This document shows positions 10,918-38,610 of a stretch of 64,000 bases of DNA, piece after piece. Positions within the stretch are counted from its first letter, which is position 1. Each line of letters begins with the position of its first letter. Position numbers and translations under genes: made by a program. Below the pieces are notes generated by a model that ran no database searches, had not been told where the DNA came from, and worked only from the letters and a program-made list of their open reading frames with translations. The DNA is taken from positions 248,001-312,000 of the forward strand of contig JAPLCA010000030.1 of the NCBI GenBank assembly GCA_026392465.1, given 5' to 3'. The DNA comes from Propionibacteriales bacterium. GTDB taxonomy: Bacteria > Actinomycetota > Actinomycetes > Propionibacteriales > Nocardioidaceae.

Positions 10918-11700
10918 GACCCTGCGGCTGCGTCGGCGCGGCTTCCTGCGGAGGTGGGGCTGCGTCGGCGCGGCTTCTCGTTCGGGTGGGGCTGCGTCGG
11001 CGCGACTTGTCTCTCGAGTGGGGGTGCGCTGGTGTGGCTCCGTGGTCGGGTGGGGCTGCGTCGGTGCGGCTTTGACTCGTCCTGCGCTCCGAAAGGGCCT
11101 CGACCGGGCGGCTGGGCGGGGGCCGGCTTCGGGTCTCGGGCTGTGGCTCGCGCTGTGGGACGCAAGATGCTGCGTTCGTGTGTGGAATGGCCAAGGGTTC
11201 TGCGTTTGCTACGGGATCCCGTCGTGAACGCAGAGGCGTTCGACCTGGTTCGCGTGAATGCAGAATCTTGGGTGCACTTTGCGTTGGGGGGACGAAGGAT
11301 TCTTCCTTCTCGTGGAACGGTCCACGAGAAGGAAGAATCCTTGCCACGTCTGGCCCCCGCGTCGGTGGATCTGCGACCTGAAGAGCGCTCAGAAGGTGGC
11401 AGATCCACCGCCGGACCGCGCAAACGCAGAATCTTGGGCCAGTCACGCACAAACGCAGAATCTTGCGTCCACAGCGGGAGCCACAGCCCGAGAACCCAGC
11501 CCACCTCGCGCCCAGCCGCCCGGTCGAGGCCCTTTCGGAGACCACCCCGAGCGCGAGCCGAGGCAGCGCAGCCCCACCCGAGAGAGAAGCCGCGCCAACG
11601 CACCCCCACCCGACCGGGAGCCCACACCAACGCAGCCCCACCCACCCGAGAACCCTCAGCAACACTGCGTGGCCCCACCCCCCACCCCGGCTTCCACCCG
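10918..11700. repeat. Palindromic interspersed repeat, copy 2 (long form)
   Basis: Fills the 920-nt gap between the divergent PhoD-like and SpoIIE genes. Left to right: five 32-bp tandem units (TGCG starts at 10929, 10961, 10993, 11025, 11057); an arm with GCTCCGAAAGGGCCTCGACC and GGGTCTCGGGCTGTGG; a GGGATCCC core at about 11215; a perfect 22-bp hairpin (11295-11342); a second hairpin (11364-11409); the mirrored arm with CCGCCCGGTCGAGGCCC at about 11517; then inverted 32-bp units at 11567, 11599 and 11631. A motif like AACGCAGAATCTTG recurs about six times in both orientations. The stretch 11066-11360 aligns with copy 4 at a constant offset of 26,940, without indels. Confidence 0.9.
11295..11342. 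repeat. 22-bp perfect hairpin inside repeat copy 2
   Basis: The left arm begins AAGGATTCTTCCTTCTCG and the right arm ends GAAGGAAGAATCCTT, with a 4-nt ACGG loop. All 22 pairs match. The same hairpin recurs in copies 3 and 4. It could be extruded as a cruciform or act as a transcript hairpin. Confidence 0.85.
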
Positions 11701-11757
11701 AGCAGCGTGCGGGTCAATCGGTAGCAGGGTCGGCGATCCTCCGGTTAGATAAAACAT

Positions 11758-13005
11758 ATGGACGATGCCCACGGGGAGGGCGGGACGCGGACGTTGACCG
11801 CGACTCGCGCGACGCCCACCACGACGACCGACCCCGACCGCGCGGTGCAGGCGACGGGACTGCTCGACACCCCGCGCGAGGAGCGGTTCGACCGGTTCAC
11901 GCAGCTGGCCCGCACCATCTGGGGCGTGCCCATGTCGAGCATCAACCTGTTCGACCACGAGCGGTCCTTCCTGAAGTCGACCGCCGGCATCGACGGCGTC
12001 ACCGAGGTGAGGACGCGCGACACGTTCTGCGAGACCACGCGCGAGCACGACGCGCCGCTCGTGGTCACCGACGCCGTGCAGGACCCGACGTTCGCGTCGC
12101 TGCCCACCGTCACGGCGTTCGGGGTCCGGTTCTACGCCGGTCACCCGATCCGCGACCAGCAGGGCACGACGATCGGCACGCTCTGCCTGTACGACACGAG
12201 CCCGCGGGACTTCGGCGACCACGACCTGACGATGCTCGAGCAGCTCGCCACCTGCGTGGAGGACGAGGTGCACCTCAGCTCCGACCGCGACCGTGCCACG
12301 TCGGTGCAGCAGGCTCTCCTCCCCCGCGCCGTCGCCCCGGTCCCCGGCTACACGTTCGCCGCCACCTGCGTCGCCACCGGGCTCCTCGCCGGCGACGCGT
12401 TCGACCACCGCGAGATCGACGGCGGCCACTACGTCCTCGTGGCCGACGTCATGGGGAAGGGCACGGCCGCCGCGATCCTCATGTCGGCGGTGCGCACCGT
12501 GATCCGTGCCGAGATGCGCCGCTTCGCCGAGACCGTCCCGGCAGCGCGCGGCCATCTGGGCGGTGTGCTCGAGCGGGCCCGCGACGTCGTCCAGGACGAC
12601 CTCGACGCCGCGGAGGCCTTCGTCACCGTCTTCCTCGGCTGGGCCGACCCGCACACCGGCGTCCTCTCCTTCGTCGACGCCGGCCACGGGCTCTCCGTGG
12701 TCGTCCACCACGACGGCAGCACCACGACCCTCGGTTCCGACGACCTGCCGCTCGGCGTCGACGCGACGTCCGACTGGCACGAGCAGCGCGTCGAGCTAGC
12801 CGCGGGCGACACGTTCGTCTGCTTCAGCGACGGGCTGCTCGACGTGGTGCCCGACATCGAGGTGCCCTCCGCCGCCGTGAGCCGGCTCGTGGCCGCCACC
12901 GGCTCGCCCCAGCGCCTCGTGCGCGAGGTCGAGCGTCTCGCACTCGCCGTGCCCGTGCGCGACGACGTGACGGTGCTGGCGGTGCGCAAGGACGCGGCGG
13001 AGTGA
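11758..13005 (+). CDS. GAF-SpoIIE (PP2C-type) phosphatase, RsbU-like
   Basis: 415 residues. A GAF domain (about 22-175: FDRFTQLARTIWGVP, FCETTREHDAPLVV, FYAGHPIRD, GTLCLYD) precedes a SpoIIE-type PPM phosphatase domain (about 180-412). The latter shows VADVMGKGTAAAILM, VDAGHGLSVVV, LPLGV and CFSDGLLDV, which supply metal-binding aspartates. Such proteins dephosphorylate STAS anti-sigma antagonists in response to a GAF-sensed signal. It is the first gene of a five-gene operon and overlaps the glycosyltransferase by GTGA. Upstream are TAGATA and 6 nt, then ATG, immediately after repeat copy 2. The expected substrate is the STAS protein two genes downstream. Confidence 0.9.
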   Translation: MDDAHGEGGTRTLTATRATPTTTTDPDRAVQATGLLDTPREERFDRFTQLARTIWGVPMSSINLFDHERSFLKSTAGIDGVTEVRTRDTFCETTREHDAPLVVTDAVQDPTFASLPTVTAFGVRFYAGHPIRDQQGTTIGTLCLYDTSPRDFGDHDLTMLEQLATCVEDEVHLSSDRDRATSVQQALLPRAVAPVPGYTFAATCVATGLLAGDAFDHREIDGGHYVLVADVMGKGTAAAILMSAVRTVIRAEMRRFAETVPAARGHLGGVLERARDVVQDDLDAAEAFVTVFLGWADPHTGVLSFVDAGHGLSVVVHHDGSTTTLGSDDLPLGVDATSDWHEQRVELAAGDTFVCFSDGLLDVVPDIEVPSAAVSRLVAATGSPQRLVREVERLALAVPVRDDVTVLAVRKDAAE

Positions 13006-14957
13006 GCTCACCCCTCTGGCAGGTCCGGCTCCTGGTCGTCCTCACCGCCGTCCTCGGAGTCAACTACGTCATCTGGCGCTGGTTCTTCTCCGTCAACTGG
13101 CCGGCCTGGTGGATCGCGGTGCCCCTCGTCGTGGCGGAGACCTACAGCGTCATCGACTCGTTGCTCTTCGGCATGACGATGTGGCGCGCGAAGCGACGTC
13201 CCGCGCCGCCCGACGCCCCACCGGACGCCACCGTCGACGTCTTCATCACGACCTACAACGAGCCGCTCGACCTGGTGCAGCGCACGGCCCTGGCGGCCGC
13301 CGAGATCCGTCACCCGCACCGGACGTGGATCCTGGACGACGGCAACCGTCCCGAGCTCGCCGCCTGGGCGGAGCAGCACGGCATCGGGTGCCTGCACCGC
13401 ACCGCCGACTGGGTCGACCGTCCACGGCACGCGAAGGCCGGCAACATCAACAACGCGCTCATGGCGACGGACGGCGAGTTCATCCTTATCCTCGACGCCG
13501 ACCAGGTGCCGACCCCCGAGATCCTCGACCGGGTCCTCGGCTACTTCGACGACCCGCGCATGGCGCTCGTCCAAACGCCGCAGTACTTCGTCAACGTCGA
13601 CGACGCCGACGTCCTGGGCAGCCAGGCACCGTTGTTCTACGGCCCCATCCAGCAGGGCAAGGACGGCTGGAACGCGGCGTTCTTCTGCGGCTCGAACGCG
13701 GTCGTCCGCCGCGAGGCGCTCATGCAGCTCGGTGTCTCGCGCTACGCCGACGAGCTGGAGCGCAGCGTGCGCACCGCGTTGCGCACGGCCCGCAGGATCG
13801 TCGGCCGCGCGAGGTCGGGTGTCGAGGAGTCCGACGCCTCGCTGCGCACGCTGCTCGACAGCATCGACTACGACGCCCGACGCGCCCTGAACGCGCTCGA
13901 CCGTGGCGAGGCCGTCGCCGACGTGACGTTCCGGTTCGGGCAGCGGCTGCGCGACGCCGAGCGCGAGGTGGCCCGCTCCGACGCCCGTCTGCTCGCCGAC
14001 GACCTCGCAGCCATCGCCGCCCTCGAGGACGGGCTGTCGACGGACGGCGTCGACGCGGTAGACGTCGAGGTGCTCGCCGCGACGCTGGAGCGCGACTGGT
14101 CGGCAGCCGGTGCGCTCAGCAGCGTGCGACGGCTGGTCGACGCGGTCGACGTGTCACGGCTCGACGAGGCCCAGCCGGTCATGCCGCTCGCCACGATCTC
14201 GGTCACGGAGGACATGGCCACCGCGATGCGCCTGCACGGCATGGGGTGGCGCACCGCGTACCACCACGAGGTCCTCGCGCACGGGCTCGCGCCCGAGGAC
14301 ATGGCCTCGATGCTCACCCAGCGGCTGCGCTGGGCCCAGGGCACCGTCCAGGTCATGTTCCGCGAGAACCCGCTCGTCCAGCGGGGCCTGTCCTGGCCGC
14401 AGCGCCTCATGTACTTCGCGACGATGTGGAGCTACCTGTCCGGCTTCGCCGCGATCGTCTACATCGGGGCCCCGGTCGTCTACCTGATCCTGGGCGTGCT
14501 CCCGGTGCAGGCCCTGAGCAGCGACTTCTTCATCCGGCTCGTGCCGTTCCTCGTCGTCAACCAGCTCCTGTTCTTCGTGGTGGGTCGCGGTGTGAGGACG
14601 TGGCGGGGCCAGCAGTACTCGCTCGCGCTCTTCCCGGTCTGGATCAAGGCGTTCACGTCGGCCTTCGGCAACGTCTTCCGTGGCCGTGCGCTCGACTTCG
14701 CGGTGACCCCGAAGGTCGTCACCCCCACCGAGGGGCGACCCCGCTGGGACCTGATCAAGCCGCAGCTCGTCGCGATGGGTCTCCTCGTCGCGGCCCTCGT
14801 CATCGGCGGTGTCCGCCTCGGCGTGGGTCAGGCCCAGCTCCTGGGTACGGCACTCAACGTGGTGTGGGTCGTCTTCGACCTCGTCATCCTGAGCATCATC
14901 ATCCGGGCCGCGCGGTACCGCGGCAGCTCGTCGGTCGAGGAGAGGACCCCCGCATGA
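13002..14957 (+). CDS. Cellulose synthase-like GT2 glycosyltransferase with a helical insertion
   Basis: 651 residues from the GTG that overlaps the preceding stop. Two N-terminal membrane helices (about 8-55) are followed by a processive GT-A domain: DVFITTYNEP (79-88), LDDGN, LDADQ (164-168), FFCGSN (227-232), VTED (401-404) and QRLRW (440-444). About four membrane helices follow. These motifs mark BcsA-like polymerising transferases acting on UDP-sugars at the membrane. No PilZ domain is visible. Between FCGS and TED, normally about 20-30 residues apart, there are about 150 extra charged, probably helical residues (about 245-398). Product unknown; cellulose or another beta-glucan or glucomannan is possible. 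Confidence 0.88.
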   Translation: MSSPLWQVRLLVVLTAVLGVNYVIWRWFFSVNWPAWWIAVPLVVAETYSVIDSLLFGMTMWRAKRRPAPPDAPPDATVDVFITTYNEPLDLVQRTALAAAEIRHPHRTWILDDGNRPELAAWAEQHGIGCLHRTADWVDRPRHAKAGNINNALMATDGEFILILDADQVPTPEILDRVLGYFDDPRMALVQTPQYFVNVDDADVLGSQAPLFYGPIQQGKDGWNAAFFCGSNAVVRREALMQLGVSRYADELERSVRTALRTARRIVGRARSGVEESDASLRTLLDSIDYDARRALNALDRGEAVADVTFRFGQRLRDAEREVARSDARLLADDLAAIAALEDGLSTDGVDAVDVEVLAATLERDWSAAGALSSVRRLVDAVDVSRLDEAQPVMPLATISVTEDMATAMRLHGMGWRTAYHHEVLAHGLAPEDMASMLTQRLRWAQGTVQVMFRENPLVQRGLSWPQRLMYFATMWSYLSGFAAIVYIGAPVVYLILGVLPVQALSSDFFIRLVPFLVVNQLLFFVVGRGVRTWRGQQYSLALFPVWIKAFTSAFGNVFRGRALDFAVTPKVVTPTEGRPRWDLIKPQLVAMGLLVAALVIGGVRLGVGQAQLLGTALNVVWVVFDLVILSIIIRAARYRGSSSVEERTPA

Positions 14958-15283
14958 CCGAGATCCACGTCGCCCACACCGAGCGCGGGATCGGGGTCGT
15001 CACCCCGGTCGGCCGACTCACCATGGTGGTCACCCGCCAGCTGACCGAGGCCATCACGGACCTCGTCGACGGCGGGACGTCCAAGGTCGTCGTCGACCTG
15101 GGCGAGACCACGTTCCTCGACTCCTCGGGGCTGGGGGCGCTCATCGCCGGTCTCAAGCGGTGCCGTCAGGCCGGTGGTGACCTGCGGCTCGCCCGACCGA
15201 CGGAGCAGGTGACCACCGTCCTGTCCTTGACCAACCTCGACCGTGTGCTCCGCCCCCGCGCCTCCGTCGAGGAGGCGTTCTGA
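14954..15283 (+). CDS. STAS-domain anti-sigma factor antagonist
   Basis: 109 residues covering a single STAS domain: GIGVVTPVGRLT, then VVVDLGETTFLDSSGLGALI. The DSSG motif (Ser57/Ser58) is the usual phosphorylation site of SpoIIAA/RsbV proteins. It overlaps the GT2 stop as ATGA and the downstream kinase start by one base (TGATG), so all three are coupled. Expected cycle: phosphorylation by the adjacent RsbW-like kinase switches it off and the GAF-SpoIIE phosphatase restores it. Its partner could be an anti-sigma factor or, given the context, a component of the polysaccharide machinery. Confidence 0.9.
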   Translation: MTEIHVAHTERGIGVVTPVGRLTMVVTRQLTEAITDLVDGGTSKVVVDLGETTFLDSSGLGALIAGLKRCRQAGGDLRLARPTEQVTTVLSLTNLDRVLRPRASVEEAF

Positions 15284-15708
15284 TGACCGAGGTGCACGAC
15301 GCCCGGCTGGTGCTGGAGGCCGTCCCGGAGCAGGTCGACACGCTGCAGGACGAGATCGTCCGGCTCTGGGAGAGCGTCCCGTCGGTGTCGACGAAGGATC
15401 GCGTGCGGTTCGAGATGGCGCTCGTGGAGATCTTCGCGAACATCGTCGAGCACAGCGTGCGCCACCACCCCGGCCCCCCGCTGCGCCAGGTGGCGATCCA
15501 GCTCGACGTGTCCCCGGGACTGCTCGAGGCGCGGTTCGCCGACGACGGCCGTCCGGTCGGGCTCGACCTCAGCGACGTGACCATGCCTCCGCCGGACGCC
15601 GAGGACGGTCGCGGGCTCGCCCTGACCATCGCCGCCGTCGACGCCCTCGCCTACGAGCGCGAGGGCGACATCAACCGGTGGACGGTGACCTGCCGGAGGA
15701 GCGGGTGA
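15283..15708 (+). CDS. RsbW-like serine kinase (HATPase_c), anti-sigma factor type
   Basis: 141-residue GHKL ATPase. The N-box is FEMALVEIFANIVEHSVRHH, the G1 region ADDGRPVGLDL and the G2 region EDGRGLALTIAAVDAL. This small stand-alone form is typical of RsbW/SpoIIAB-like kinases that phosphorylate STAS partners and hold sigma factors. No sigma factor gene lies in the operon, so its output is open: a distant sigma factor, or direct control of the exopolysaccharide enzymes. It overlaps the next gene by GTGA. Confidence 0.88.
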   Translation: MTEVHDARLVLEAVPEQVDTLQDEIVRLWESVPSVSTKDRVRFEMALVEIFANIVEHSVRHHPGPPLRQVAIQLDVSPGLLEARFADDGRPVGLDLSDVTMPPPDAEDGRGLALTIAAVDALAYEREGDINRWTVTCRRSG

Positions 15709-18146
15709 CCCTACGGCGTCTGCTCCTCACGGCGCTCGTCGGCCTGCTCCCGCTGCTCGCAGGAGCGCCGGCCCGGGCCGCCGACGTGGTGCCGACGCCG
15801 ACGGACGGCCCCTACGTGGGGCCGATGCTCGACTGGAGCCGCGACTCGGCCGACGACTACGCCGACCGCCTCGGTCTCTCACCGTCGGTCTACGCCCAGA
15901 AGGTGCGCTACCCCCTCGACCGCGACGACCGGCTCTACCTGCGCCAGTTCGCGCAGCAGACGGCGGCGCACGGGGCGATCGCGCAGCTCACGCTCGAGCC
16001 GCGGGTCCCGCTGGACCAGCTGACGGCAGCCGATGCGCGCGCCGTCGGCGCGCAGCTGCAGACCCTGCACGAGCAGCTCGACACGGACTTCGTGGTCCGC
16101 TTCGCGCCCGAGATGAACGGCTCGTGGACGGCCTGGGGGCAGCAGCCCGAGGCGTACAAGGCGGCGTTCCGCGAGGCGGCCCGCGGGATCGAGTCGCGCA
16201 CCGACGCCGTCGAGATGGCCTGGGTCCCGGCCTACGGTGCCGGCTACCCCTTCGGTCGGTCCTACGGATCCGTCCCGGGCTCCGCTCCCCGGCCCCCCGG
16301 GCAGCTCGACACCGACGACGACGGCCGGGTGACCGGGGTCGACGATCCGTACGGTCCGTACTGGCCCGGCGCCGACGTGGTGGACCGCGTCGGGCTGGTG
16401 ATGTTCCGGTTCGGCCGGGCGCAGCCGTTCGACACCGACTCGGTCCCGGCCTCCGACGAGCTCGTCGCCAGGCTGCAGGAGCGCTACGGCTACGACGACG
16501 ACACCCGACGTCGCCCGTTCTACGACCGCTTCGCCCGCGACGGACGCTCGATGTCGCTGGAGACCGCGGCCGCCTGGTACGACCGCGGCGACGTCGACGA
16601 GCTCGCGGTGAAGTCGGCCTGGTGGAACCAGGTCTTCTCCCCCACCGTCCGGTCCGCGTACCCGCGCCTCGACCTCGTCACCTGGCTCGAGCAGCGACGT
16701 CGTGAGGACGAGGCCGACGGTCGCGAGACGGACTGGCGCGTGACGTCGCGGCCGGAGCTCGCCCGTCCGTTCGAGGCGGTCCTGCGCTCGAGTGCGACGA
16801 CCGGTGCCGTCACGCGGGTGGTGGACCAGCAGGTCGCGAACGAGTCGACCGCCGAGTACCGCCAGGCCGACCCGGCCGACGGCGACCCGATGGCCTGGAT
16901 CGTCGGCTGCGTCGTGCTCGCCGCCGCGCTCTTCGTCGGCTCGGGCCTGGTGCGGCGCCTCTCGCCGTCGTGGCGCTACCCCGACGACGGCGGACTGCGC
17001 GACGGACGGGTCGACTTCCTGCGCGGCTGGGTCATGGTGACGGTGGTCGTGATCCACACCGAGCTGGCAGGTCCGTACTCGTTCCTCAGCCGCAACGCCA
17101 TCGGGGCGATCACCGGTGCCGAGATGTTCGTGCTGCTGTCGGGGCTGGTGCTCGGCATGGTCTACCCGCGGGCGGTCGAGCGTCTCGGCCCGAGGGCCGC
17201 GTCGGCCGCGGCCTGGGCCCGCGTGCGCAAGCAGTACCTGACCGCCCTCGGCGTCGTCGTGCTCGTCTACCTCATCGGGCTGGTCCCGGGCATCAGCGCG
17301 AAGGTCGTCACCACGTTCACCGACCGCGGCACGGGCACGGGCGGAGGAGCCGCCGCGAGCCAGGTGTACGACCTGTACGCGAACTTCCCGCAGCTCCTCG
17401 CCTACCCGCCGCCGTGGTATGCCGTGCGAGGCCTGCTGCTCCTGGAGATGGGCCCGTGGGTCTTCACCATCATGGGGCTGTTCGTCGTGCTCTCGGCGCT
17501 GGTGCCCGCCCTCATGTGGCTGCTGCGCCGCCGGCTCTGGTGGCTCGTCCTGGCGATCTCCTGGACGCTGTACGGGATCGAGGCCGTCACGAAGGCGTCC
17601 GTCCTGCCGTCGCAGTTCGATGCTGTGTTCCCGCTGCTCAGCTGGCAGCTGCCGTTCCTGCACGGGCTCGTGATCGGCTACTACCGCCGCCCCCTCACCC
17701 GCGCGCTCACGAGTCGTCGCGGGGTCGCGGTCGTCACGACCCTCGTCGTGGGCTACGCGGTCGTGCTCACGACGCTGTGGGCGACGCAGGGAGCGCCGTT
17801 CCTCGGGATCGTGCGCTACGACTGGCTGTACGAGAACCTGTACCAGCGCATCTACCTGCAGCCGGGCCGACTCCTCGACCTGCTGCTCGTCCTGGTCGTC
17901 GCCTACGCCCTGCTGACGGCCGCATGGAAGCCGCTGAACCGCGCGTTCGGCTGGTTCTACGTGCCCATCGGTGCGGCCAGCCTCTCCGTGTTCATCGTGC
18001 ACGTCTTCTTCGTCGTCGCGGTCGCCAACATCCCCGGCCTCGACCGCAGCAGCCCATGGCAGGGCGCCGTCGTGCACACCGTCGAGCTCGGGCTCATCTG
18101 GCTCATGGTGCGCCGGCGCTTCCTGTTCAAGGTCATCCCGACCTGA
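15705..18146 (+). CDS. GH26-like glycosidase fused to an OpgC-like membrane acyltransferase
   Basis: 813 residues from GTG 15705. Residues 1-26 are a signal peptide (LLPLLAGAPARAAD). A secreted domain (about 35-370) resembles GH26-type beta-mannanase/endoglucanase relatives: RFAPEMNGSWTAWG with Glu136 as candidate acid/base, and SMSLETAAAWY with Glu286 as candidate nucleophile. A DTDDDGRVTGVDD calcium-loop-like segment lies between them. After a membrane helix near 395-415, residues about 430-810 form a roughly ten-helix domain beginning RVDFLRGWVMVTVVVIH, similar to OpgC-type acyltransferases that succinylate glucans. Last gene of the operon; it probably trims and decorates the GT2 product outside the membrane. 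Domain names rest on motif recognition. Confidence 0.8.
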   Translation: MTLRRLLLTALVGLLPLLAGAPARAADVVPTPTDGPYVGPMLDWSRDSADDYADRLGLSPSVYAQKVRYPLDRDDRLYLRQFAQQTAAHGAIAQLTLEPRVPLDQLTAADARAVGAQLQTLHEQLDTDFVVRFAPEMNGSWTAWGQQPEAYKAAFREAARGIESRTDAVEMAWVPAYGAGYPFGRSYGSVPGSAPRPPGQLDTDDDGRVTGVDDPYGPYWPGADVVDRVGLVMFRFGRAQPFDTDSVPASDELVARLQERYGYDDDTRRRPFYDRFARDGRSMSLETAAAWYDRGDVDELAVKSAWWNQVFSPTVRSAYPRLDLVTWLEQRRREDEADGRETDWRVTSRPELARPFEAVLRSSATTGAVTRVVDQQVANESTAEYRQADPADGDPMAWIVGCVVLAAALFVGSGLVRRLSPSWRYPDDGGLRDGRVDFLRGWVMVTVVVIHTELAGPYSFLSRNAIGAITGAEMFVLLSGLVLGMVYPRAVERLGPRAASAAAWARVRKQYLTALGVVVLVYLIGLVPGISAKVVTTFTDRGTGTGGGAAASQVYDLYANFPQLLAYPPPWYAVRGLLLLEMGPWVFTIMGLFVVLSALVPALMWLLRRRLWWLVLAISWTLYGIEAVTKASVLPSQFDAVFPLLSWQLPFLHGLVIGYYRRPLTRALTSRRGVAVVTTLVVGYAVVLTTLWATQGAPFLGIVRYDWLYENLYQRIYLQPGRLLDLLLVLVVAYALLTAAWKPLNRAFGWFYVPIGAASLSVFIVHVFFVVAVANIPGLDRSSPWQGAVVHTVELGLIWLMVRRRFLFKVIPT

Positions 18147-18179
18147 CCGCGCAGCGTGCGGCCGGCCGGGGCCGTCAGG

Positions 18180-20513: not shown

Positions 20514-20573
20514 TCACTGCTCCTGTCGTGCCTTCCATCGTAGGCCAGGGGCGGCCACCACCGAAGCGGCGTG

Positions 20574-20666: not shown

Positions 20667-20678
20667 GGTCTCCGGTCC

Positions 20679-27123: not shown

Positions 27124-27179
27124 ACGCGCTGTCGGGACGGCGCGGCGGACGCCACGCCGGGGTGAAAGGGTGGGTGCTG

Positions 27180-27900
27180 CAGCAGGGGGTCTCGACCTGC
27201 TGGTGCGCTGCCTGCGGGGCCTCTACTAGCTGGTGCGCTGCCGCAGGAGGTCTCGACCCGCTGGTGCGCTGCCTCGGCCTTCGCTGTGCCTGGTCTCCGA
27301 AAGGGCCTCGACCGGGCGTCTGGCGGCGACGTTGGTCTGGGGTCTCGGGCTGCGGGTTGGTGCTGGTGTAGACGCAGGATTCTTCGTTCGTGCACTGCGG
27401 GTCCGACGCTTCTGCGTTGGCTACGGGATCCCGTCGTGAACGCAGAAGCGTTCGGGCTCGCACGCGTGGATGGCGAATCGTGGGTGCCCTGTGCGTTGGG
27501 GGGACGCGAGATTCTTCCTTCTCGTGGCACGGTCCACGAGAAGGAAGAATCCTTCACACGTCTGGCCCCGTCAGCGGTGGATGCGCCACCTGTAGAGCGC
27601 TCAGAAGGTGGCAGATCCACCGCCGGACCACGCAAACGCAGAATCTTGGGCCGAGCACGCGTAAAGGAAGAATCGTGCGCCGCCCGCGAGCCCAAACCGG
27701 ACCCCGAGACCCAAAGCCACCCCCGGACCCGCTGCCGGTCGAGGCCCTTTCGGAGACCACACCCAGCGCCAGCCGAGGCAGCGCAGCAGCAAGGTCGCGA
27801 CGACTGCAGCCAGCGCACCAGCAACCACAGACCCCTTACGGCAGCGCACCAGCAAGACCGCGCCAGCCGAGGCAGCGCACCAGAGAGGCCCGAGCCACCC
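27180..27900. repeat. Palindromic interspersed repeat, copy 3 (long form)
   Basis: Fills the gap between ruvC and yebC. Left tandem units contain CTGGTGCGCTG about every 30-31 bp (27200, 27230, 27261). The arm has TCTCCGAAAGGGCCTCGACC, GACGCAGGATTCTTCG and a GGGATCCC core at about 27425. The central hairpin occupies 27510-27551 (18-bp stem), and a second hairpin of the GGTGGAT...ATCCACC type has one mismatch. The right arm has GGTCGAGGCCCTTTCGGAGA and mirrored units CAGCGCACCA at 27811, 27842 and 27873. The outer units belong to a different sequence subtype from copies 2 and 4. Confidence 0.88.
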
Positions 27901-29341: not shown

Positions 29342-29347
29342 TGGGAC

Positions 29348-29353
29348 AGCCTA
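29348..29353 (-). promoter_or_regulatory. Leaderless -10 element of pdxT
   Basis: TAGGCT on the minus strand with 6 nt to GTG 29341. It allows pdxT expression independent of the upstream cassette. Confidence 0.5.
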
Positions 29354-29391
29354 GTGACGCCGGCGCTCGGGACGTCGGAGAGGACCCAGCA

Positions 29392-29428
29392 GGCGGGGGC
29401 GGGGCGCTGAGCGCCTCACACCCCCGCC
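29392..29428 (-). terminator. Hairpin after the SipW cassette
   Basis: An outer stem GGCGGGGG/CCCCCGCC encloses an inner GGCGC-TCA-GCGCC stem. It lies in the 246-nt gap between the end of the cassette and pdxT, isolating pdxT. The rest of the gap (29429-29587) holds no gene that I can support, though TAGACT at about 29539 on the minus strand resembles a -10. Confidence 0.5.
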
Positions 29429-29587
29429 GCTCCCTCACGGCATCCCTCCCGATCGGGTCTGGGGTCGGGAGCCCGCGCACCGGCAGATGTCGCGCTCCCT
29501 CGCTCCGCGCCGGACACTCCAGCCGAGCGGAACGCCATGAGTCTACCCAGGGGACCCGCCGAGGTGACCAGCGGTCGGCGTCCCTCG

Positions 29588-32160: not shown

Positions 32161-32761
32161 GGTGGCCCCTCCTGCGGCGTCGGAGGAGGAGGGCACCCGC
32201 GAGCAGCGACGCGGCCGCCGACACGAGCAGCCAGGCCGGCACGGTCGTGCCGGTGGCCGGCAACGGGGCCCCTTCGTCCACACGGTCGGCCGTGAGGGTG
32301 ATGTCGACGCCGAGCTCGACCTGCTCCTCCTGCGTCTGGTTCGTGGCGGCCGGGTCGAACGTCGCCTCGACGTCGACCCGGGTGCTCCCACTACGCCCGA
32401 CCCCGGGTCCTCGGTCCGCGGTGGAGACGGGCCCGCCGAGCTCGACCCAGCCGGTCCGCGCCGTCCGCGCCCGGAGGATGACGTCGCCCCGGTGCACGAG
32501 GTCGCCGACGACCTCGGCGCGCACACGCATGACCGCCCCGGCGGGACCGCCGTTGCGCACCCAGAAGCTCGCCACGCGGCGGTCTCCGGGAACCCATCGC
32601 ATCTCGGGGTCGAAGAGCGGTGCCGTCAGCTGAGGCGCCCACGTTCGACCATCGCGGCTGAAGTCGATGTCGCGGCCGGCGTGGGCCGGGCCCCCTGGGA
32701 CGCCGACGAGGAGGACCGTGGTGAGGAGAGCCGTCGCGCGCCTCGTCGTCGCCGCCCTCAC
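32153..32761 (-). CDS. LPXTG-anchored surface protein
   Basis: 202 residues. Signal peptide TALLTTVLLVGVPGGPAHAG. The C-terminus LPATGTTVPAWLLVSAAAS, then a hydrophobic stretch and RRRRRG, is a complete sortase sorting signal. The mature region is beta-rich (RWVPGDRRVASFWVRNGG) and contains TNQTQEEQVELGVDITLTAD. It resembles accessory proteins encoded with SipW-type systems. No sortase gene is in the window, so a housekeeping sortase elsewhere is assumed. GTGA overlap with the upstream peptidase gene. Confidence 0.75.
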   Translation of the reverse strand: MRAATTRRATALLTTVLLVGVPGGPAHAGRDIDFSRDGRTWAPQLTAPLFDPEMRWVPGDRRVASFWVRNGGPAGAVMRVRAEVVGDLVHRGDVILRARTARTGWVELGGPVSTADRGPGVGRSGSTRVDVEATFDPAATNQTQEEQVELGVDITLTADRVDEGAPLPATGTTVPAWLLVSAAASLLAGALLLRRRRRGHHG

Positions 32762-33297
32762 GCCAGCACCTCGTCCCGGCGGCGACGGCTGTCGCGGAAC
32801 GCGGTCATGAAGGTCGACCCGGCGTAGAGCACGAGCCCCGCGGCCACCAGCTGGATGCCGTGCTGCCGCTGCTGCGGGTCCAGGGTCCCGCTGAGCCGGC
32901 CGAGCTCGGGCACCGCGTACCAGAGGCGACCGCGAATCTGCTCGGGACGTCGCAGGTCGAGGTCGGCCGTCCGGTTGGCGTCTCCCTGCGTGCGAAAGAG
33001 CATCTCGCCCTTGAGGGTGTGCTCGACCTGCACGACGCGGTGGGTGACGTACCCGCTCCGGCCGGACTCGAGCTGCACGGTGACGACGTCACCGACGCGC
33101 ACGTCGGCCGGGTCGACCGGCCGGGCGACGACGAGCGTGCCCGGGGGGAGGTGCGGCTCCATGGATCCGGTCAGCACCGTGTAGGGCGTCGCACCCCCGA
33201 GTCGCGGCACCAGGACGGCAGCAGCAACCGCAAGCAGGGCGGCGAGCATGACGATCCAGGCGACGAGCCGGACCGACCAGGACAGCAGCATGCGCAC
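32758..33297 (-). CDS. Signal peptidase I, SipW/ER type
   Basis: 179 residues from GTG 33297, which has AGGAGG 8 nt upstream. An N-terminal helix (WSVRLVAWIVMLAALLAVAA) precedes LTGSMEPHLPPGTLVV (Ser nucleophile), then GYVTHRVVQV (His in place of the Lys of the LepB type), FRTQGDANRTAD and a C-terminal helix. The Ser-His dyad marks the SipW type, which processes TasA-like substrates. Its genetic neighbours are three such substrates, supporting this role. Confidence 0.85.
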   Translation of the reverse strand: MRMLLSWSVRLVAWIVMLAALLAVAAAVLVPRLGGATPYTVLTGSMEPHLPPGTLVVARPVDPADVRVGDVVTVQLESGRSGYVTHRVVQVEHTLKGEMLFRTQGDANRTADLDLRRPEQIRGRLWYAVPELGRLSGTLDPQQRQHGIQLVAAGLVLYAGSTFMTAFRDSRRRRDEVLA

Positions 33298-33315
33298 GTG
33301 GATCACCTCCTCGGT

Positions 33316-33374
33316 GCGTCCCGACCGAGGACGGGCAGGGCGTGGCCCGGTGCCCGCCCCGCCTGTCGGGACGC
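33316..33374 (-). terminator. Nested hairpin between the fibre-like gene and its peptidase
   Basis: GCGTCCCGAC/GTCGGGACGC (10-bp arms) enclosing CGGGCA/TGCCCG. It occupies most of the 90-nt gap. It could attenuate transcription so that the first gene is made in excess over the peptidase. Confidence 0.45.
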
Positions 33375-33387
33375 GTGCGCCTCGGGG

Positions 33388-33918
33388 TCAGCGGACCTGG
33401 GTCACGTAGACCTGGAGGTTGTCGAGCGCGGCGGTCGTCGCGTCCTGCGAGTCGTCGTTGACGCCCGACCCGTACGGGTAGGTCACCGTCAGGTCGAAGG
33501 ACACGTCCGTGGGGCTCGAACCGACCGGCACGCGGTCGGCGCCGCTGGGGCTGGTCAGCACGGCGGCGACGTCGAGCGTGTCGGCAGTCCCGCCTTCGGC
33601 ACCGAGGAGGCTCAGCGTGCGAGCGACGGAGTCCTGGTTGATCTCGACCTTCGCGAGCAGGTTCTCGCCCTCGCCGGTGAGCGTGCCGCTGCACGACTTC
33701 GTGACGACGTCACCAGGGACCACGGCGGTGACGACCGCTCCGTCGGCGGTCTTCCAGGAGTCACTGCAGGACATGCCGCTCATGACGATACGACCGGAGC
33801 TGATCGCACCGGCGTCGACCTTGCCGTCGGCACTCCAGTAGGCCAGCGTGCCGGCTCCTCCGGCGAGCAGGACAGCAGCAGCACTCAGCGCCAGGGCGCC
33901 CTTGACAGACGTCTTCAT
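33388..33918 (-). CDS. SipW-type secreted surface protein with alternate-type signal peptide
   Basis: 176 residues. KTSVKGALALSAAAVLLAGG, then AGTLAYWSADGKVDAGAISS, matches the alternate-type signal peptide domain known from actinobacterial SipW substrates. The mature protein is small, acidic and beta-rich with two cysteines (MSCSDSW, TKSCSGTL), consistent with a subunit of a surface filament. It is the first gene of the cassette, has GAGGGAG before the ATG, and sits behind an unusually AT-rich 200-nt region, suggesting separate regulation. Confidence 0.8.
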   Translation of the reverse strand: MKTSVKGALALSAAAVLLAGGAGTLAYWSADGKVDAGAISSGRIVMSGMSCSDSWKTADGAVVTAVVPGDVVTKSCSGTLTGEGENLLAKVEINQDSVARTLSLLGAEGGTADTLDVAAVLTSPSGADRVPVGSSPTDVSFDLTVTYPYGSGVNDDSQDATTAALDNLQVYVTQVR

Positions 33919-34059
33919 TGAAGTTCTCCCTCTTCGATCTCACCACTACCGGTCGGTAACGGCGCTCCCGTGGAAGATCATCCAAGTTTCAACAATCGGT
34001 CGCAACGAGTTGAGATATGTGCGCAACTTTTGAGGAGGAATGTCCCCGCCCGACAACGA
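33919..34059 (-). promoter_or_regulatory. AT-rich promoter region of the SipW cassette
   Basis: About half AT, against roughly 30 % in the neighbourhood. On the minus strand TTGCGA, 17 nt, then GATGAT is a possible sigma-70 promoter, followed by a leader with a ribosome binding site. This differs from the leaderless style of the backbone genes. Confidence 0.35.
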
Positions 34060-34089
34060 CGAACGCCCCTCGAGATCGAGGGACGTTCG
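34060..34089 (-). terminator. Terminator hairpin after pdxS
   Basis: CGAACG-C-CCCTCG, loop AGAT, CGAGGG-A-CGTTCG: a 12-bp stem with one mismatch, 31 nt past the pdxS stop. Confidence 0.6.
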
Positions 34090-34119
34090 TCCTTCTCGCT
34101 GGAATGCCGGTGACGCAGG

Positions 34120-35046
34120 TCACCAGCCGCGCTCGGCGAGTCGGTGCGGCTCGGGGATGTCGTCGACGTTGATGCCGACCATGGCCTCGCCGAGGCCGCG
34201 GGAGACCTTGGCGACCACGTCGGGATCGTCGTAGAAGGTGGTGGCCTTGACGATGGCCTCGGCGCGCTGCTGCGGGTTGCCGGACTTGAAGATGCCCGAG
34301 CCGACGAACACGCCCTCCGAGCCGAGCTGCATGACGAGCGCGGCGTCGGCGGGCGTGGCGATGCCGCCGGCGGTGAACAGCGTGACGGGCAGCTTGCCGA
34401 GCTCGGCGACCTCCTTGACCAGCTCGAAGGGCGCCTGCAGCTCCTTGGCGGCGACGTACAGCTCGTCCTCGCGCAGCGACTGCAGGCGGCGGATCTCGCC
34501 GGTGATCTTGCGGATGTGCGTGACGGCGTTCGACACGTCACCGGTGCCGGCCTCGCCCTTGGAGCGGATGAACGCCGCGCCCTCGGTGAGCCGGCGCAGC
34601 GCCTCGCCGAGGTTGGTCGCACCGCACACGAACGGGACGTTGAAGGCCCACTTGTCGATGTGGTTGGCGTAGTCGGACGGGGTGAGGACCTCGGACTCGT
34701 CGATGTAGTCGACGCCGAGACTCTGGAGCACCTGCGCCTCGGCGAAGTGGCCGATCCGCGCCTTCGCCATGACCGGGATCGAGACGGCCTCGATGATGCC
34801 GTCGATGAGGTCGGGGTCGCTCATGCGCGCGACACCACCCTGGGCACGGATGTCGGCCGGGACGCGCTCGAGCGCCATGACGGCCACGGCGCCGGCGTCC
34901 TCGGCGATGCGCGCCTGGTCGGCGTCGACGACGTCCATGATGACGCCGCCCTTCAGCATCTCGGCCATGCCGCGCTTCACGCGGGCCGTGCCCACGCTCG
35001 GGGTGCTGGTGCCGTCGGGGGTCGGGGAGGTCTGCGGGGTGCTCAC
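34120..35046 (-). CDS. pdxS: Pyridoxal 5'-phosphate synthase subunit PdxS
   Basis: 308 residues. TIM-barrel synthase: [48 protein letters not shown] and [19 protein letters not shown], all nearly invariant in the family. Builds PLP from pentose and triose phosphates with ammonia from PdxT. GTG start 6 nt after TAGACT; this hexamer contains the TAG stop of the upstream reductase gene. The usual downstream neighbour pdxT is displaced by the SipW cassette. Confidence 0.97.
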
Positions 35047-35052
35047 CGTCCC

Positions 35053-35058
35053 AGTCTA
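35053..35058 (-). promoter_or_regulatory. Leaderless -10 element of pdxS
   Basis: TAGACT on the minus strand with 6 nt to GTG 35046. Its first three bases are the stop codon of the preceding gene. Confidence 0.5.
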
Positions 35059-36705
35059 TCGAGCGCGCGCGGCGCCGTTCACGACGTCCAGCATCCGTGC
35101 GCGGTCGACGACCTTGCGGCGCGGACGGCCCTGCTCGCGTCCCGCGGCGCGCTCGTGCGCGTCGAGGCGTCGCCAGGCGTCGAGGTCGAGCCCCGCTCGG
35201 GTCTGCACCGACGGCTCGGAGGCGGGTGCGGCGTCGAGCCGGCCCAGCGCGACGTCGGCGAGGAGGTGGTTGACGGTCTCCAGCGAGCACGACTTGTTGG
35301 TGCCGATGAAGCCGGTCGGGCCGCGCTTGGCCCACCCGACCACGTACGTGCGCGGCAGCAGCGCCCCACCGGGGGCCTGGAGCACGCGACCGCCGACGTT
35401 CGGGATGCGGTGGGCGACCGGGTCGAAGGGCACTCCGGGCACGGGCGTGGAGCGGTAGCCGACCGAGCGCAGGACCGTCGTGGTGGCGACGTCCTCCAGC
35501 TCACCCGTGGGCACCGCGACGACGGTGCCGTCTGCTGTGGTCTCCAGACGGGTGCGCGCGAGGCGCAGCCCGGTAACCGCACGCTCGCCGAGCACCTCGA
35601 CGGGGGCGGCGAGGAAGCGCAGGAGCACGTGACGTCGTCCCTCGACCGGCTCGGCCGTGGTCCCTTCGCGGAGCAGTCGGCTCTTCACGTCGTCGCCGTC
35701 GAGCAGGTCGCGCTGCGGCACGACGACGTCGACGTCGGGGTGGTGCAGCAGCCCGACGAGCTCGGGCACGGTGAACGCCGCCTGGGCGGGTCCGCGTCGG
35801 GCGACCAGCTCGACGCAACGCAGATGGCTGGTCCGCAGCGCCTCGAGGGCGTGGTCGGCGATGTCGGTGCCGGCCAGCTCCGCGGGGTCGCTGAGCAGCA
35901 CGCGGGCGACGTCGAGGGCGACGTTGCCGTTGCCGACGACCACGGTGCGTCCGGCGTCGAGGTCGATCGGGGTGGCCACGTGGTCGGGGTGGCCGTTGTA
36001 CCAGGCGACGACGGCCGTCGCGGTGGTGTTGCCCGGCAGGTCCTCCCCCGGGATCCCGAGGCGACGGTCGGCGGACGCGCCCGTGGCGTAGACGACCGCG
36101 TCGTGGCGCTGCAGGAGCTGCTCGTGCGTGACGTCGACACCCACCTCCAGCCCGAGGGCGTAGGAGAAGCCGGGCTGCGCCTCGATGCGCGCGAAGAGGT
36201 CGGTGATGGCCTTCGTGTGCTGGTGGTCGGGAGCGACGCCGGCACGCACCAGGCCGTGAGGGGTGGGGAGCCGGTCGACGACCGTGACCCGCACACCACG
36301 CTGCTTCAGCAGCTCGTCGGCGGCGTACAGCGCGGCAGGCCCTGCGCCGACCACGGCGACGTCGAGCCGGCGCTCGGGCGGCAGCCGGACGACCGGCGGC
36401 ACGGGTGCCTGCGCCGGACGGGTGGGCGACTCGAGCCCGTTGCCGACGTCGGAGCCGGCGTGGAACAGCGCGTTCAGCTCGACGAAGACCTGCTCGTCGG
36501 GCGTGAGCCGCGACGCCGGCTTGATCGCGCCGACAGGGCACGCCCGGACGCACGCGCCGCAGTCGACGCACGCCTGCGGGTCGATGTAGACCATGTCCGA
36601 CGTGGCGAAGTCGGGCTCGTCGGGCGTCGGGTGGATGCAGTTGACCGGGCAGGCGAAGGCGCAGGCGGCGTCGCCGCAGCACGCCTGGGTGACGACGTGC
36701 GGCAC
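35056..36705 (-). CDS. Ferredoxin fused to ferredoxin-NADP reductase (FprB-like)
   Basis: 549 residues. Residues 1-70 are a 7Fe/8Fe-type ferredoxin (CCGDAACAFACPVNCIHP, DPQACVDCGACVRACPVGA). The rest is an adrenodoxin-reductase-like FAD/NADPH domain: VAVVGAGPAALYAADEL, TPHGLVRAGVAPDH, VVVGNGNVALDVARVLL, VGWAKRGPTGFIGTNK. It passes electrons from NADPH to its own iron-sulfur domain. The gene begins one base after the diiron oxygenase stop, so it is the likely electron supplier of that enzyme. The mycobacterial relative is FprB. Confidence 0.92.
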   Translation of the reverse strand: MPHVVTQACCGDAACAFACPVNCIHPTPDEPDFATSDMVYIDPQACVDCGACVRACPVGAIKPASRLTPDEQVFVELNALFHAGSDVGNGLESPTRPAQAPVPPVVRLPPERRLDVAVVGAGPAALYAADELLKQRGVRVTVVDRLPTPHGLVRAGVAPDHQHTKAITDLFARIEAQPGFSYALGLEVGVDVTHEQLLQRHDAVVYATGASADRRLGIPGEDLPGNTTATAVVAWYNGHPDHVATPIDLDAGRTVVVGNGNVALDVARVLLSDPAELAGTDIADHALEALRTSHLRCVELVARRGPAQAAFTVPELVGLLHHPDVDVVVPQRDLLDGDDVKSRLLREGTTAEPVEGRRHVLLRFLAAPVEVLGERAVTGLRLARTRLETTADGTVVAVPTGELEDVATTTVLRSVGYRSTPVPGVPFDPVAHRIPNVGGRVLQAPGGALLPRTYVVGWAKRGPTGFIGTNKSCSLETVNHLLADVALGRLDAAPASEPSVQTRAGLDLDAWRRLDAHERAAGREQGRPRRKVVDRARMLDVVNGAARAR

Positions 36706-36706
36706 G

Positions 36707-37741
36707 TCAGGACGGACCGACCGGGGACGGGTCGGTCAGCCGCGCCGGCGGCTCGCTGCGGTAGCGCGAGGGCCGGCCGTCGATCTTCAGCCAGCGCCAG
36801 ACGCGGCGCGACGAGCGCGTCATGAGCGTCGACTCCTCGGCCAGCATGCGCACGTCGCTGAACAGCTCGGCGAGGAACTCGCGGGACTCGGGCGCGTCCC
36901 AGTACAGCTCGTCGATGACCTCCTGAGGCACGCCCATCTGGGTGCGCAGCTCCTTCGGGGGCACGAGGATGAGGTCGCCCGCGACGCGCATGATGATCGG
37001 GAACATCATCGACATGATCCAGCGGTCGACCTTCCCGAGGTGGGGGCCGCTGCGCATCACGTAGGCGTGTGCGAAGGAGATGTGGCGCGCCTCCTCCGCG
37101 ACGTGGATCTGCATGATGCGTCGCATGACCGGCGGCAGGTTCGCGCCCTCGCGCAGCATCCGCTTCTGGGTGTGGTCGATCGGCTCATCGCCGGCCAGGA
37201 CCGCGATGAAGAAGCCGAGCGGGTAGCGGGACGCGAACAGCGGGATGACACCGTGCAGCGCCCGCATCCAGCGCGGCATGCCCGGGACGTCGGCGCCGAT
37301 GCGGTTGACGCACTCCTGGAACATCTGCGTGTGGTGGCACTCCTCCGTGGCCTCGTGGGTGAGGTAGCGGAACTCGGCCGACCCGTTCGGGCGGGTGAAG
37401 ACGTACTGCATGATGCCGCGGATCAGCAGGTTCTCGAACTGCAGACCCACCTTGAAGATGTTGGCGTAGCGCCACATCCCGATCTCGATCTGCCGCTCGA
37501 CGGGCAGGTTCCGGTACCAGGGGTGGCGACCGAGCGGGTCGGCCTCGGTGAGCACCCAGTGCCGGTCGTGGGGGTCGATGCGGAAGTCGGGGTCGTCCCA
37601 CGGGACGTCGACGAACGCGTCGAAGTTGCGGTCGACCGACGCCTGCGACAGGGCCCGGAGCGTCGCCTCGTACTCCGGCGTCGCGAGCGACGCGAGGCTC
37701 TCCTGGGTGCGGTCGAGATCCTGCTCGTCCATGAGGGTCAT
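36707..37741 (-). CDS. AurF-like diiron oxygenase
   Basis: 344 residues, all-helical. Diiron ligands are visible as FENLLIRG, ATEECHHTQMF (EExxH) and HVAEEARHISFAH (EExRH). The family contains p-aminobenzoate N-oxygenase AurF and uncharacterised membrane-associated diiron proteins of actinobacteria; the substrate cannot be predicted. It forms a two-gene operon with the ferredoxin-reductase fusion. The promoter is complete: TTGACA, 17 nt, CATACT, 6 nt, ATG (leaderless). An in-frame ATG three codons later is less likely. Confidence 0.85.
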   Translation of the reverse strand: MTLMDEQDLDRTQESLASLATPEYEATLRALSQASVDRNFDAFVDVPWDDPDFRIDPHDRHWVLTEADPLGRHPWYRNLPVERQIEIGMWRYANIFKVGLQFENLLIRGIMQYVFTRPNGSAEFRYLTHEATEECHHTQMFQECVNRIGADVPGMPRWMRALHGVIPLFASRYPLGFFIAVLAGDEPIDHTQKRMLREGANLPPVMRRIMQIHVAEEARHISFAHAYVMRSGPHLGKVDRWIMSMMFPIIMRVAGDLILVPPKELRTQMGVPQEVIDELYWDAPESREFLAELFSDVRMLAEESTLMTRSSRRVWRWLKIDGRPSRYRSEPPARLTDPSPVGPS

Positions 37742-37791
37742 ACCGCGAGTATGTGACGGCGGTCGCTATGTGTCAAGACCAATGTCACATT
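37742..37791 (-). promoter_or_regulatory. Leaderless promoter and operator of the diiron oxygenase operon
   Basis: -10 CATACT at 37748-37753 and -35 TTGACA at 37771-37776 (minus strand), spacer 17 nt. Just upstream, AATGTCACATT (37781-37791) is a perfect odd palindrome, and TGTCA is repeated three times in this short region, suggesting a repressor or activator site. Confidence 0.6.
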
Positions 37792-37849
37792 AGTAGTGTC
37801 ATGGTTTCGCGGAGCATCTTGGGGCCTCTCGTAGACCTGCGGCGTGTGG

Positions 37850-38610
37850 GTCGGGTTCTCGTGCGGGTGAGCGGTGCGGGTTCGAGGTCGGGTGGGGCTG
37901 CGCGGGTGTGGCTTCCCCTTGGGGTGGGGCTGCGCTGCTGCGGCTTCTCGCTCGGGTGGGGGGGTGCGCTGGCGCGGCTTCTCGTTCGGGTGGGGCTGCG
38001 CTGGCGCGGCTTTGACTCGTCCTGCGCTCCGAAAGGGCCTCGACCGGGCGGCTGGGCGGGGGCCGGCTTCGGGTCTCGGGCTGCGGCTCGCGCTGTGGGA
38101 CGCAAGATGCTGCGTTCGTGTGCGGAATGGCGAAGGATGCTGCGTTTGCTACGGGATCCCGTAGCAAACGCAGGAGCGTTTGGTCTCAATCGCGCGAATG
38201 CAGAATCTTGGGTGCACTTTGCGTTGGGGGGACGAAGGATTCTTCCTTTTCGTGGACCGTTCCACGAAAAGGAAGAATCCTTCACACGCCTGGCCTCCGC
38301 GTCGGTGGATCTGCCACCTGTAGAGCGCCCAGAAGGTGGCAGATCCACCGCCGGCACGCGCAAACGCAGAATCTTGCGTCCAACGCGAGCCGCAGCCCGA
38401 GAACCCAGGTCAGCACCGCTGCCAGCCGGCCGGTCGAGGCCTTTCGGAGACCACACCCACGAGAAGCCGCGCCAGCGCAGCCCCACCCGAGCACGAAGCC
38501 ACGCCAGCGCAGCCCCACCCGATATCGAACCCACACCAGCGCAGCCGCAGCTCGACGGGAAGCCACGCCAGCGCACCCCCACCCGCCCGAGAAGCAACAC
38601 GACGCAGCCC
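37850..38610. repeat. Palindromic interspersed repeat, copy 4 (long form)
   Basis: Fills the gap between the diiron oxygenase promoter and pgsA. Left units at 37899, 37931, 37965 and 37997 (32 bp, one 34). The core is a loopless perfect palindrome (38140-38173, 17-bp arms around GGGATCCC). Central hairpin 38235-38282 (22 bp, loop CCGT) and hairpin 38304-38349 (16 bp, 14-nt loop) are both perfect. The right arm has GGCCGGTCGAGGCCTTTCGG; inverted units at 38476, 38508, 38540 and 38572 are exactly 32 bp apart. It is the most symmetric copy and nearly identical to copy 2 in the left arm. Confidence 0.9.
38140..38173. repeat. Loopless 17-bp palindrome in repeat copy 4
   Basis: CTGCGTTTGCTACGGGA followed by its exact reverse complement, centred on GGGATCCC. 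In copies 2 and 3 the right arm differs (CGTCGTGAACGCAG). Confidence 0.85.

What the first reader, a model, noticed from the sequence alone, without database searches (positions are those of the whole stretch)
10918..38610. A family of large nested-palindrome intergenic elements, four copies in 64 kb
Copies at about 555-960, 10918-11700, 27180-27900 and 37850-38610 share ordered blocks. The three long copies have an outer tandem array, an inverted arm (CTCCGAAAGGGCCTCGACC with its mirror), a GGGATCCC core, a 22-bp class hairpin, a GGTGGAT-type hairpin, the mirrored arm and the mirrored tandem array. None contains a transposase or a credible gene. Copies 2 and 4 align without indels over about 300 bp (constant offset 26,940). 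The density suggests hundreds of copies per genome. I do not recognise the family; it is much larger than REP/BIME or typical MITEs.
Basis: partly seen in the sequence, partly recalled or inferred. Interest (0 to 1): 0.88.

Follow-up and report, generated by a model that had tools for sequence, protein, structure and literature searches.

The report
Nested palindrome repeats in Aeromicrobium
Some fifty to sixty copies of a gene-free, palindrome-inside-palindrome sequence of 400 to 800 bases sit at mostly the same places between genes in two related Aeromicrobium bacteria, and their inner parts look rewritten from copy to copy, although the kind of enzyme known to spread such palindromes was not found.

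Summary
The four window copies are one family. The three long ones share arm, three hairpins and mirrored arm inside mirrored tandem arrays. The genome holds roughly 50-60 copies, not hundreds. The genus is Aeromicrobium; the exact arm is in 4 of 341 genomes of the family, one genus of 26. 44 of 48 copies examined have a copy at the same site in a sister species, all four window copies included. Core hairpins at one site are no more alike between the species than cores of different sites, while outer arrays keep memory of their site; 0 of 15 same-site core pairs are sisters in a tree. I read this as ectopic gene conversion centred on the core (inferred). Y1 (RAYT/IS200-type) transposases: 0 of 49 Aeromicrobium genomes. 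SbcD was not detected in the 4 carriers, nor in some non-carriers. An H2-like hairpin stands alone in other Aeromicrobium. Verdict: an unusually large composite repeat of REP/BIME kind, apparently undescribed; how it first spread is unknown.

The parts
560..970 (.). Copy 1, short form: B-type array, degenerate left arm, Tc, GATC core (724-753), Tc, mirrored arm (850-870), B-type array; no H1 or H2 found
   Evidence: same-site partner in G005 is L191
10926..11072 (.). Copy 2, left tandem array (type A, period 32)
11087..11107 (+). Copy 2, arm
   Evidence: 0 mismatches
11202..11231 (.). Copy 2, GATC core palindrome
11294..11343 (.). Copy 2, H1 palindrome (23-bp arms, 4 central bases)
11362..11411 (.). 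Copy 2, H2 double hairpin (GGTGGAT type)
11520..11540 (-). Copy 2, mirrored arm
   Evidence: 0 mismatches
11546..11643 (.). Copy 2, right mirrored tandem array
   Evidence: inverted repeat I1
27176..27274 (.). Copy 3, left tandem array (type B, period 30-31)
27295..27315 (+). Copy 3, arm
   Evidence: 0 mismatches
27414..27443 (.). Copy 3, GATC core palindrome
27506..27555 (.). Copy 3, H1 palindrome
27574..27623 (.). Copy 3, H2 double hairpin
27735..27755 (-). Copy 3, mirrored arm
   Evidence: 0 mismatches
27766..27883 (.). Copy 3, right mirrored tandem array
37890..38012 (.). Copy 4, left tandem array (type A, period 32)
38027..38047 (+). Copy 4, arm
   Evidence: 0 mismatches
38142..38171 (.). 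Copy 4, GATC core palindrome
38234..38283 (.). Copy 4, H1 palindrome
38302..38351 (.). Copy 4, H2 double hairpin
38432..38451 (-). Copy 4, mirrored arm (one base shorter, so missed by the ungapped scan)
   Evidence: read; paired with the left arm in the fold
38459..38611 (.). Copy 4, right mirrored tandem array

Best explanation
A gene-free family of composite palindromic repeats, found so far only in some Aeromicrobium species, in which REP-sized hairpins are stacked inside inverted arms. Shown: most copies sit at the same sites in two species; inside the copies, the palindromic core carries no memory of its site between the species, while the outer arrays do; in this genome H1 copies are far more alike than copies of the two species at one site. 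Inferred: the cores are homogenised by ectopic homologous recombination (gene conversion) that starts at or near the core, where single-stranded DNA can fold into a long stem with three hairpins; a stalled or broken fork there would be repaired from another copy. [quoted passage not shown] How the family first reached its sites is not shown. I assign no host function: tolerated occupants of gaps, most often avoiding promoters.
For: 44 of 48 G000 copies face a G005 copy at the same site, 4 of the 44 by one flank only. Same-site minus different-site identity between species: GATC +0.004, H1 +0.003, H2 +0.006 (383, 252, 372 of 2000 permutations as high), 60 bp inside the arm +0.025 (2 of 2000), arrays 0-160 bp outside +0.055 to +0.089 (0 to 10 of 2000). 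H1 identity within G000 0.95, same site between species 0.81, different sites between species 0.80. Core tree of 57 rows: 5 species changes against 18.3 in shuffles, 0 of 500 as low; 0 of 15 same-site pairs are sisters, median rank of the true partner 8 of 23. Array type next to the arm differs at 18 of 76 same-site comparisons. Fold z -20.1 and -18.7. Y1 transposase 0 of 49 genomes, controls ring in 5 of 14. SbcD not detected in 4 of 4 carriers, controls ring in 13 of 14.
Against: Homogenisation of H1 is strong only in G000; in G005 paralogs are 0.78 alike. Intergenic DNA next to the flanking genes is itself only 0.80 identical between the species, so the cores are not faster than their surroundings; the case rests on likeness of paralogs and lack of site memory. 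Pairing of the inner stem is no better within a copy than between copies (1963 and 1936 of 2000 permutations as high). SbcD is also missing from Aeromicrobium without the family, and the four carriers are close kin. The module scan used consensuses typed from this genome with a mismatch limit, so G005 and G019 modules may be missed (G005 H1 hits mostly 8-12 mismatches of 14 allowed). G000 is a draft in which several contigs end in copies. Recent re-copying at old sites by an unknown enzyme would look much the same.
Confidence: 0.5

Rival explanations
1. A non-autonomous mobile element (MITE- or REPIN-like) moved in trans by an enzyme not identified here; core likeness reflects recent rounds of copying, not conversion.
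For: The family is dispersed, inverted-arm-bounded and gene-free. Some sites differ between species: the yebC-ruvC gap is filled in G000, G005 and G029 but not in G019, and the G019 site L288 lacks the family in G000.
Against: No Y1 transposase in 49 of 49 genomes. Among the 57 G005 loci arm pairs are about 230-440 bp apart except three of about 1.5 kb, and those carry an IS30-type insertion rather than a cognate gene. 44 of 48 sites are shared with the sister species. No target duplication seen at the yebC-ruvC site.
Confidence: 0.25
2. Transcription terminators or insulators between genes, kept by selection on each site.
For: 45 G000 copies with both neighbours: 21 tandem, 19 convergent, 5 divergent gaps, against 96, 23, 51 among 170 C22 gaps of at least 60 bp; convergent enrichment odds ratio 4.7, p = 7e-5; divergent depletion p = 0.012. 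Very stable hairpins.
Against: About half the copies are tandem and some divergent; in G005 28 tandem, 19 convergent, 10 divergent. Avoiding promoters gives the same bias. The scan of copy 4 found 2 terminator-like sites against 0.5 expected (sd 0.7), neither at a large hairpin's foot with a long T run. At 27 of the 30 yebC-ruvC loci inspected the family is absent.
Confidence: 0.12
3. A chromosome-structure or DNA-binding-protein site (BIME-like role in supercoiling or nucleoid folding).
For: Uneven map in the complete genome G005: 4 of 57 loci within 500 kb of the record's ends against 15.7 expected, p = 1e-4; recF lies near the record's start, so the poor region is probably around the origin.
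Against: The family is absent from 337 of 341 genomes of the family by the exact arm. A tolerated burden would be scarce near the origin too. Strand bias and spacing rules were not tested.
Confidence: 0.05

Closest known systems
REP / BIME / REPIN repeats (PMC8049555, PMC3733652 and PMC12306157: passages read; PMC3116915 and PMC2817692: listings only)
   Same: Dispersed extragenic hairpins in inverted pairs, tens of copies or more, combined into mosaics; no own gene; a target of insertion sequences, as reported for REPs in the abstract of PMC1525189.
   Different: 400-800 bp with arms and tandem arrays and three different hairpins in fixed order; no RAYT-type Y1 transposase in 49 genomes; inner parts homogenised while sites are shared with a sister species.
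MITEs (general class; recalled, no family matched here)
   Same: Short, gene-free, inverted-repeat-bounded, dispersed.
   Different: No parent insertion sequence with these arms was found among the loci examined; no target duplication seen at the one site compared closely; ends are degenerate arrays, not sharp terminal repeats.
Long interrupted palindromes in E. coli and the nuclease SbcCD (PMC3315005, abstract and outline)
   Same: Interrupted palindromes of hundreds of bp that can form hairpins and provoke rearrangement.
   Different: There a single 246-bp interrupted palindrome in the E. coli chromosome; here a natural family in genomes where SbcD was not detected.

Membership tests
REP/REPIN (RAYT-mobilised) | Extragenic hairpin repeats in inverted pairs, many copies | tested here: met
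REP/REPIN (RAYT-mobilised) | A RAYT (Y1 transposase, PF01797) in the genome or clade | tested here: not met
   0 of 49 Aeromicrobium genomes; controls ring in 5 of 14
REP/REPIN (RAYT-mobilised) | GTAG- or CGTC-type tag at the hairpin foot | not tested
   tags named in the title of PMC3733652; not scanned for here
BIME (mosaic of REP-type units) | Mosaic built of smaller repeat units that also occur alone | tested here: inconclusive
   H2-like units stand alone in 6 of 49 Aeromicrobium genomes by a strict pattern, none of them arm carriers (8 other species by looser matches); stand-alone H1 or GATC units were not seen in the 444 kb of C22
MITE | Target site duplication and clean empty site | tested here: not met
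   no duplication seen at the yebC-ruvC site, G019 empty versus G000, G005, G029 filled; one site only
MITE | Terminal repeats shared with a transposase-bearing element | tested here: inconclusive
   no such element among the 48 G000 and 57 G005 loci examined; the rest of the genomes was searched by arm only
Insertion sequence | Own transposase gene | tested here: not met
   no gene in window copies; the IS30-type gene in L158, L159 and L160 is an insertion into the element
Known structured RNA | Match to an Rfam family at gathering score | tested here: not met
   only 4 tRNAs in the window

The most novel reading that the evidence does not exclude
A natural family of DNA that folds into a stem with three hairpins and renews itself by homologous conversion alone: in lineages without SbcCD the folded core provokes the breaks that copy one variant over the others, so it drives through a genome without any transposase.
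Probability: 0.2. Interest if true: 0.8.

Novelty: new variant of a known kind. Interest (0 to 1): 0.6.

Why it matters
In this repeat family the site is inherited and the content is not, with an inside-out gradient of site memory that can be measured copy by copy. If the gradient reflects breaks at the palindromic core, palindrome-driven gene conversion becomes testable in a natural genome. It would also show that REP-like populations can persist and be renewed where no RAYT is found.

Tried and rejected
RAYT/IS200-type mobiliser: none in 49 genomes. Autonomous version with its own gene: the three arm pairs about 1.5 kb apart in G005 carry an IS30-type insertion, and the 1-kb pair (L161) rests on a chance arm match in nusG (gene named from its protein by eye). 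I first thought the three insertions lay at three points; one search shows two: L158 and L160 share one (left of the GATC core), L159 lies in H1. Conversion triggered by SbcCD cutting: dropped, since SbcD was not detected in the carriers and SbcC shows there only a match at profile positions 5-50 of 1043 (strong matches in 18 of 49 genomes, none over the cut-off; 1 of 14 controls over it). SbcD loss as an explanation for the family: 12 of 37 Aeromicrobium genomes of 95% completeness or more have no match, 11 a weak partial one, 14 are over the cut-off; all 4 carriers are among the 12, but they are close kin, so I draw no statistical conclusion. Upkeep of the stem copy by copy: not supported (inner stem 0.775 within against 0.790 between copies in G000, 0.706 against 0.722 in G005). 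Outer arrays match within copies in G000 (0 of 2000 permutations) but not in G005 (1497 of 2000). Faster evolution of the core than its surroundings: not supported. Literature: search listings and passages or outlines of five papers; none of these showed palindromes described in Aeromicrobium, and the library holds openly licensed PubMed Central papers only.

Rows dropped or limits: the core tree used 57 of 105 loci (both arms, one H1, 250-500 bp between arms; L158-L161 left out). Identity tests used 71 same-site sides and 69 after leaving out L161. One search scored 40 of 196 candidates, 40 of 83. H1 covariation used 81 distinct rows from L-numbered loci chosen for at least 17 of 25 self-complementary positions, which raises the pairing figure, and its shuffles do not remove relatedness. 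G019 loci (17) came from the partial listings. One search matched 48 of 49 genomes but returned 30 loci. Gene calls for context are from a home-made codon score, and its background includes the C22 gaps that hold copies.
Full report
What is there. The window holds four copies of one repeat, at about 560-970, 10926-11643, 27176-27883 and 37890-38611. A long copy reads: tandem array of 30-32 bp units (type A or B), arm CTCCGAAAGGGCCTCGACCGG, a small hairpin (Tc), a palindrome around GGGATCCC (GATC), a 50-bp palindrome (H1), a double hairpin of the GGTGGAT type (H2), Tc again, the mirrored arm and a mirrored array. The module names are mine. In copy 1 no H1 or H2 was found. As single-stranded DNA the arm-to-arm part of copy 4 (449 nt) and of copy 2 (486 nt) folds into a long stem that carries the GATC, H1 and H2 hairpins in copy 4 and mainly H1 and H2 in copy 2, 20.1 and 18.7 standard deviations below 100 shuffles each.

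How many and where. In the window's genome (3.69 Mb, 39 contigs) the arm with up to three mismatches occurs 50 times forward and 53 reverse, reversed control 0 and 1. In the complete genome G005 it is 51 and 51, control 0 and 1; 100 of the 102 were listed and give 57 loci. One listed match lies in nusG and is chance. Contig C22 has 12 copies in 444 kb. The exact arm is in 4 of 341 genomes of the family and 1 of 26 genera. No match in viral contigs (exact 19-mer), plasmids or phages, nor in Rfam.

Sites are shared. Flanks of 48 G000 copies and 57 G005 copies were compared. 44 of 48 face a G005 copy, with flanks 88-98% identical, 4 of them (L201, L231, L233, c22_95) by one flank only. The window copies face L191, L192, L193 and L194. 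Four G000 copies (L203, L204, L232, c22_216) and 13 G005 copies found no partner in the DNA held; G000 contig ends were not all fetched. Core orientation agrees at 25 of 27 sites, array type next to the arm at 58 of 76; H1 was found in both species at 27 sites, in G000 alone at 13, in G005 alone at 2, in neither at 2, with the caution that the H1 consensus came from G000. In the more distant G019 most complete cores have two H1-like palindromes and no H2 by this scan; 5 of 17 loci share a site with G000 or G005 by both flanks (L283, L285, L286, L287, L289), one by one flank (L294), one (L288) maps to a C22 gap without the family, and the other 10 gave no clear placement in the DNA held.

Content is not. 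Between the species, GATC, H1 and H2 modules at the same site are no more alike than at different sites (+0.003 to +0.006; 252 to 383 of 2000 permutations as high). The 60 bp inside the arm show a small excess (+0.025; 2 of 2000) and the arrays outside a clear one (+0.055 to +0.089; 0 to 10 of 2000). In a separate ungapped comparison H1 copies are 0.95 alike within G000, 0.81 at the same site between species, 0.80 at different sites between species and 0.78 within G005. So G000 is strongly homogenised for H1 and G005 is not. In a tree of 57 cores (34 and 23) the species label changes 5 times against 18.3 in shuffles; 0 of 15 same-site pairs are sisters and the true partner has median rank 8 of 23. 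A control that limits the claim: the 40 bp of intergenic DNA next to the flanking gene are 0.80 identical on average between the species (0.74 stop side, n 36; 0.88 start side, n 29). The cores are therefore not faster than their surroundings; what is odd is the likeness of paralogs in G000 and the lack of site memory.

Parts. An H2-like double hairpin stands alone elsewhere in the genus: a strict pattern finds it in 6 of 49 genomes (10 in G011, 5 in G027, 3 in G031, 1 each in G021, G033, G004), none of them arm carriers, and looser matches lie in 8 other species. In the copies the two loops tend to change together. H1 in 81 distinct rows of four species has 87.7% of cells paired, two-sided changes in 12 of 23 pairs and 166 such cells against 86.1 in shuffles, at most 35 when the partner is slid; rows were pre-chosen for palindromy, and two of the measures are not above shuffles (pairs with two-sided change 69 of 500, pair types 179 of 500). 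At the yebC-ruvC gap where copy 3 lies (YebC over and RuvC just under the curated cut-off), 3 of 30 loci carry the element (G000, G005, G029); the other 27, G019 included, show no arm, GATC, H1 or H2. By eye, three of these (L258, L260, L261) carry other short palindromes there; whether those are repeats was not tested.

What moves it. Y1 transposases: 0 of 49 genomes, controls 5 of 14. Three G005 copies (L158, L159, L160) carry the same 342-aa protein, IS30 family by one of the three (NF033563, E 3.4e-80), in a nearly identical insert. L158 and L160 have it at the same point left of the GATC core, L159 in H1. The shared point may be two target-specific insertions or one that was spread by conversion; I cannot tell. 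No target duplication was seen at the yebC-ruvC site. SbcD: none in 4 of 4 carriers, controls 13 of 14; 104 of 148 family genomes over the cut-off, in the genus 14 of 37. That SbcCD limits palindrome-induced rearrangement in E. coli is in the abstract of PMC3315005. Since non-carriers lack SbcD too, its absence can at most permit the palindromes.

Setting. Of 45 G000 copies with both neighbours 21 lie in tandem, 19 in convergent and 5 in divergent gaps; C22 gaps of at least 60 bp are 96, 23 and 51 (Fisher 7e-5 for convergent, 0.012 for divergent); 3 copies lacked a neighbour. G005: 28, 19, 10 of 57. In G005 4 of 57 loci lie within 500 kb of the record's ends against 15.7 expected, p = 1e-4; recF is at about 4.2-5.3 kb.

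Judgement. Anatomy, clade restriction, shared sites and the inside-out gradient of site memory are shown. Gene conversion is the best reading but inferred. First spread, function and any role of SbcCD are open.

Noticed in passing
contig C22 of the same genome, 367214-367423 (L098) and 414698-414825 (L101), outside the window: A second composite palindrome family around GATTCCCAGGTCGACCTGGGAATC; its inner 18-mer CCCAGGTCGACCTGGGAA was counted 12 times on 444 kb of C22. In G019 a relative lies right beside an arm-bearing copy (L288).
   Followed up: partly
L158, L159, L160 (G005): An IS30-type insertion in three copies of the element, twice at exactly the same point of the core.
   Followed up: partly
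genus Aeromicrobium: SbcD is patchy: 14 of 37 genomes over the cut-off, 11 weak partial, 12 none; SbcC strong in 18 of 49.
   Followed up: partly
yebC-ruvC gap in L258, L260, L261: Other Aeromicrobium species carry unrelated-looking short palindromes at the place where copy 3 lies (by eye).
   Followed up: no
window 53660-54978: tRNA-Val(cac) on the minus strand faces tRNA-Gly, tRNA-Cys and tRNA-Val(gac) on the plus strand; the two tRNA-Val genes form a 91% inverted repeat.
   Followed up: no
window 44818-44868: A clean 14-bp tandem repeat GGTGGGGGCAGGGT, 3.6 copies, outside the palindromic elements.
   Followed up: no
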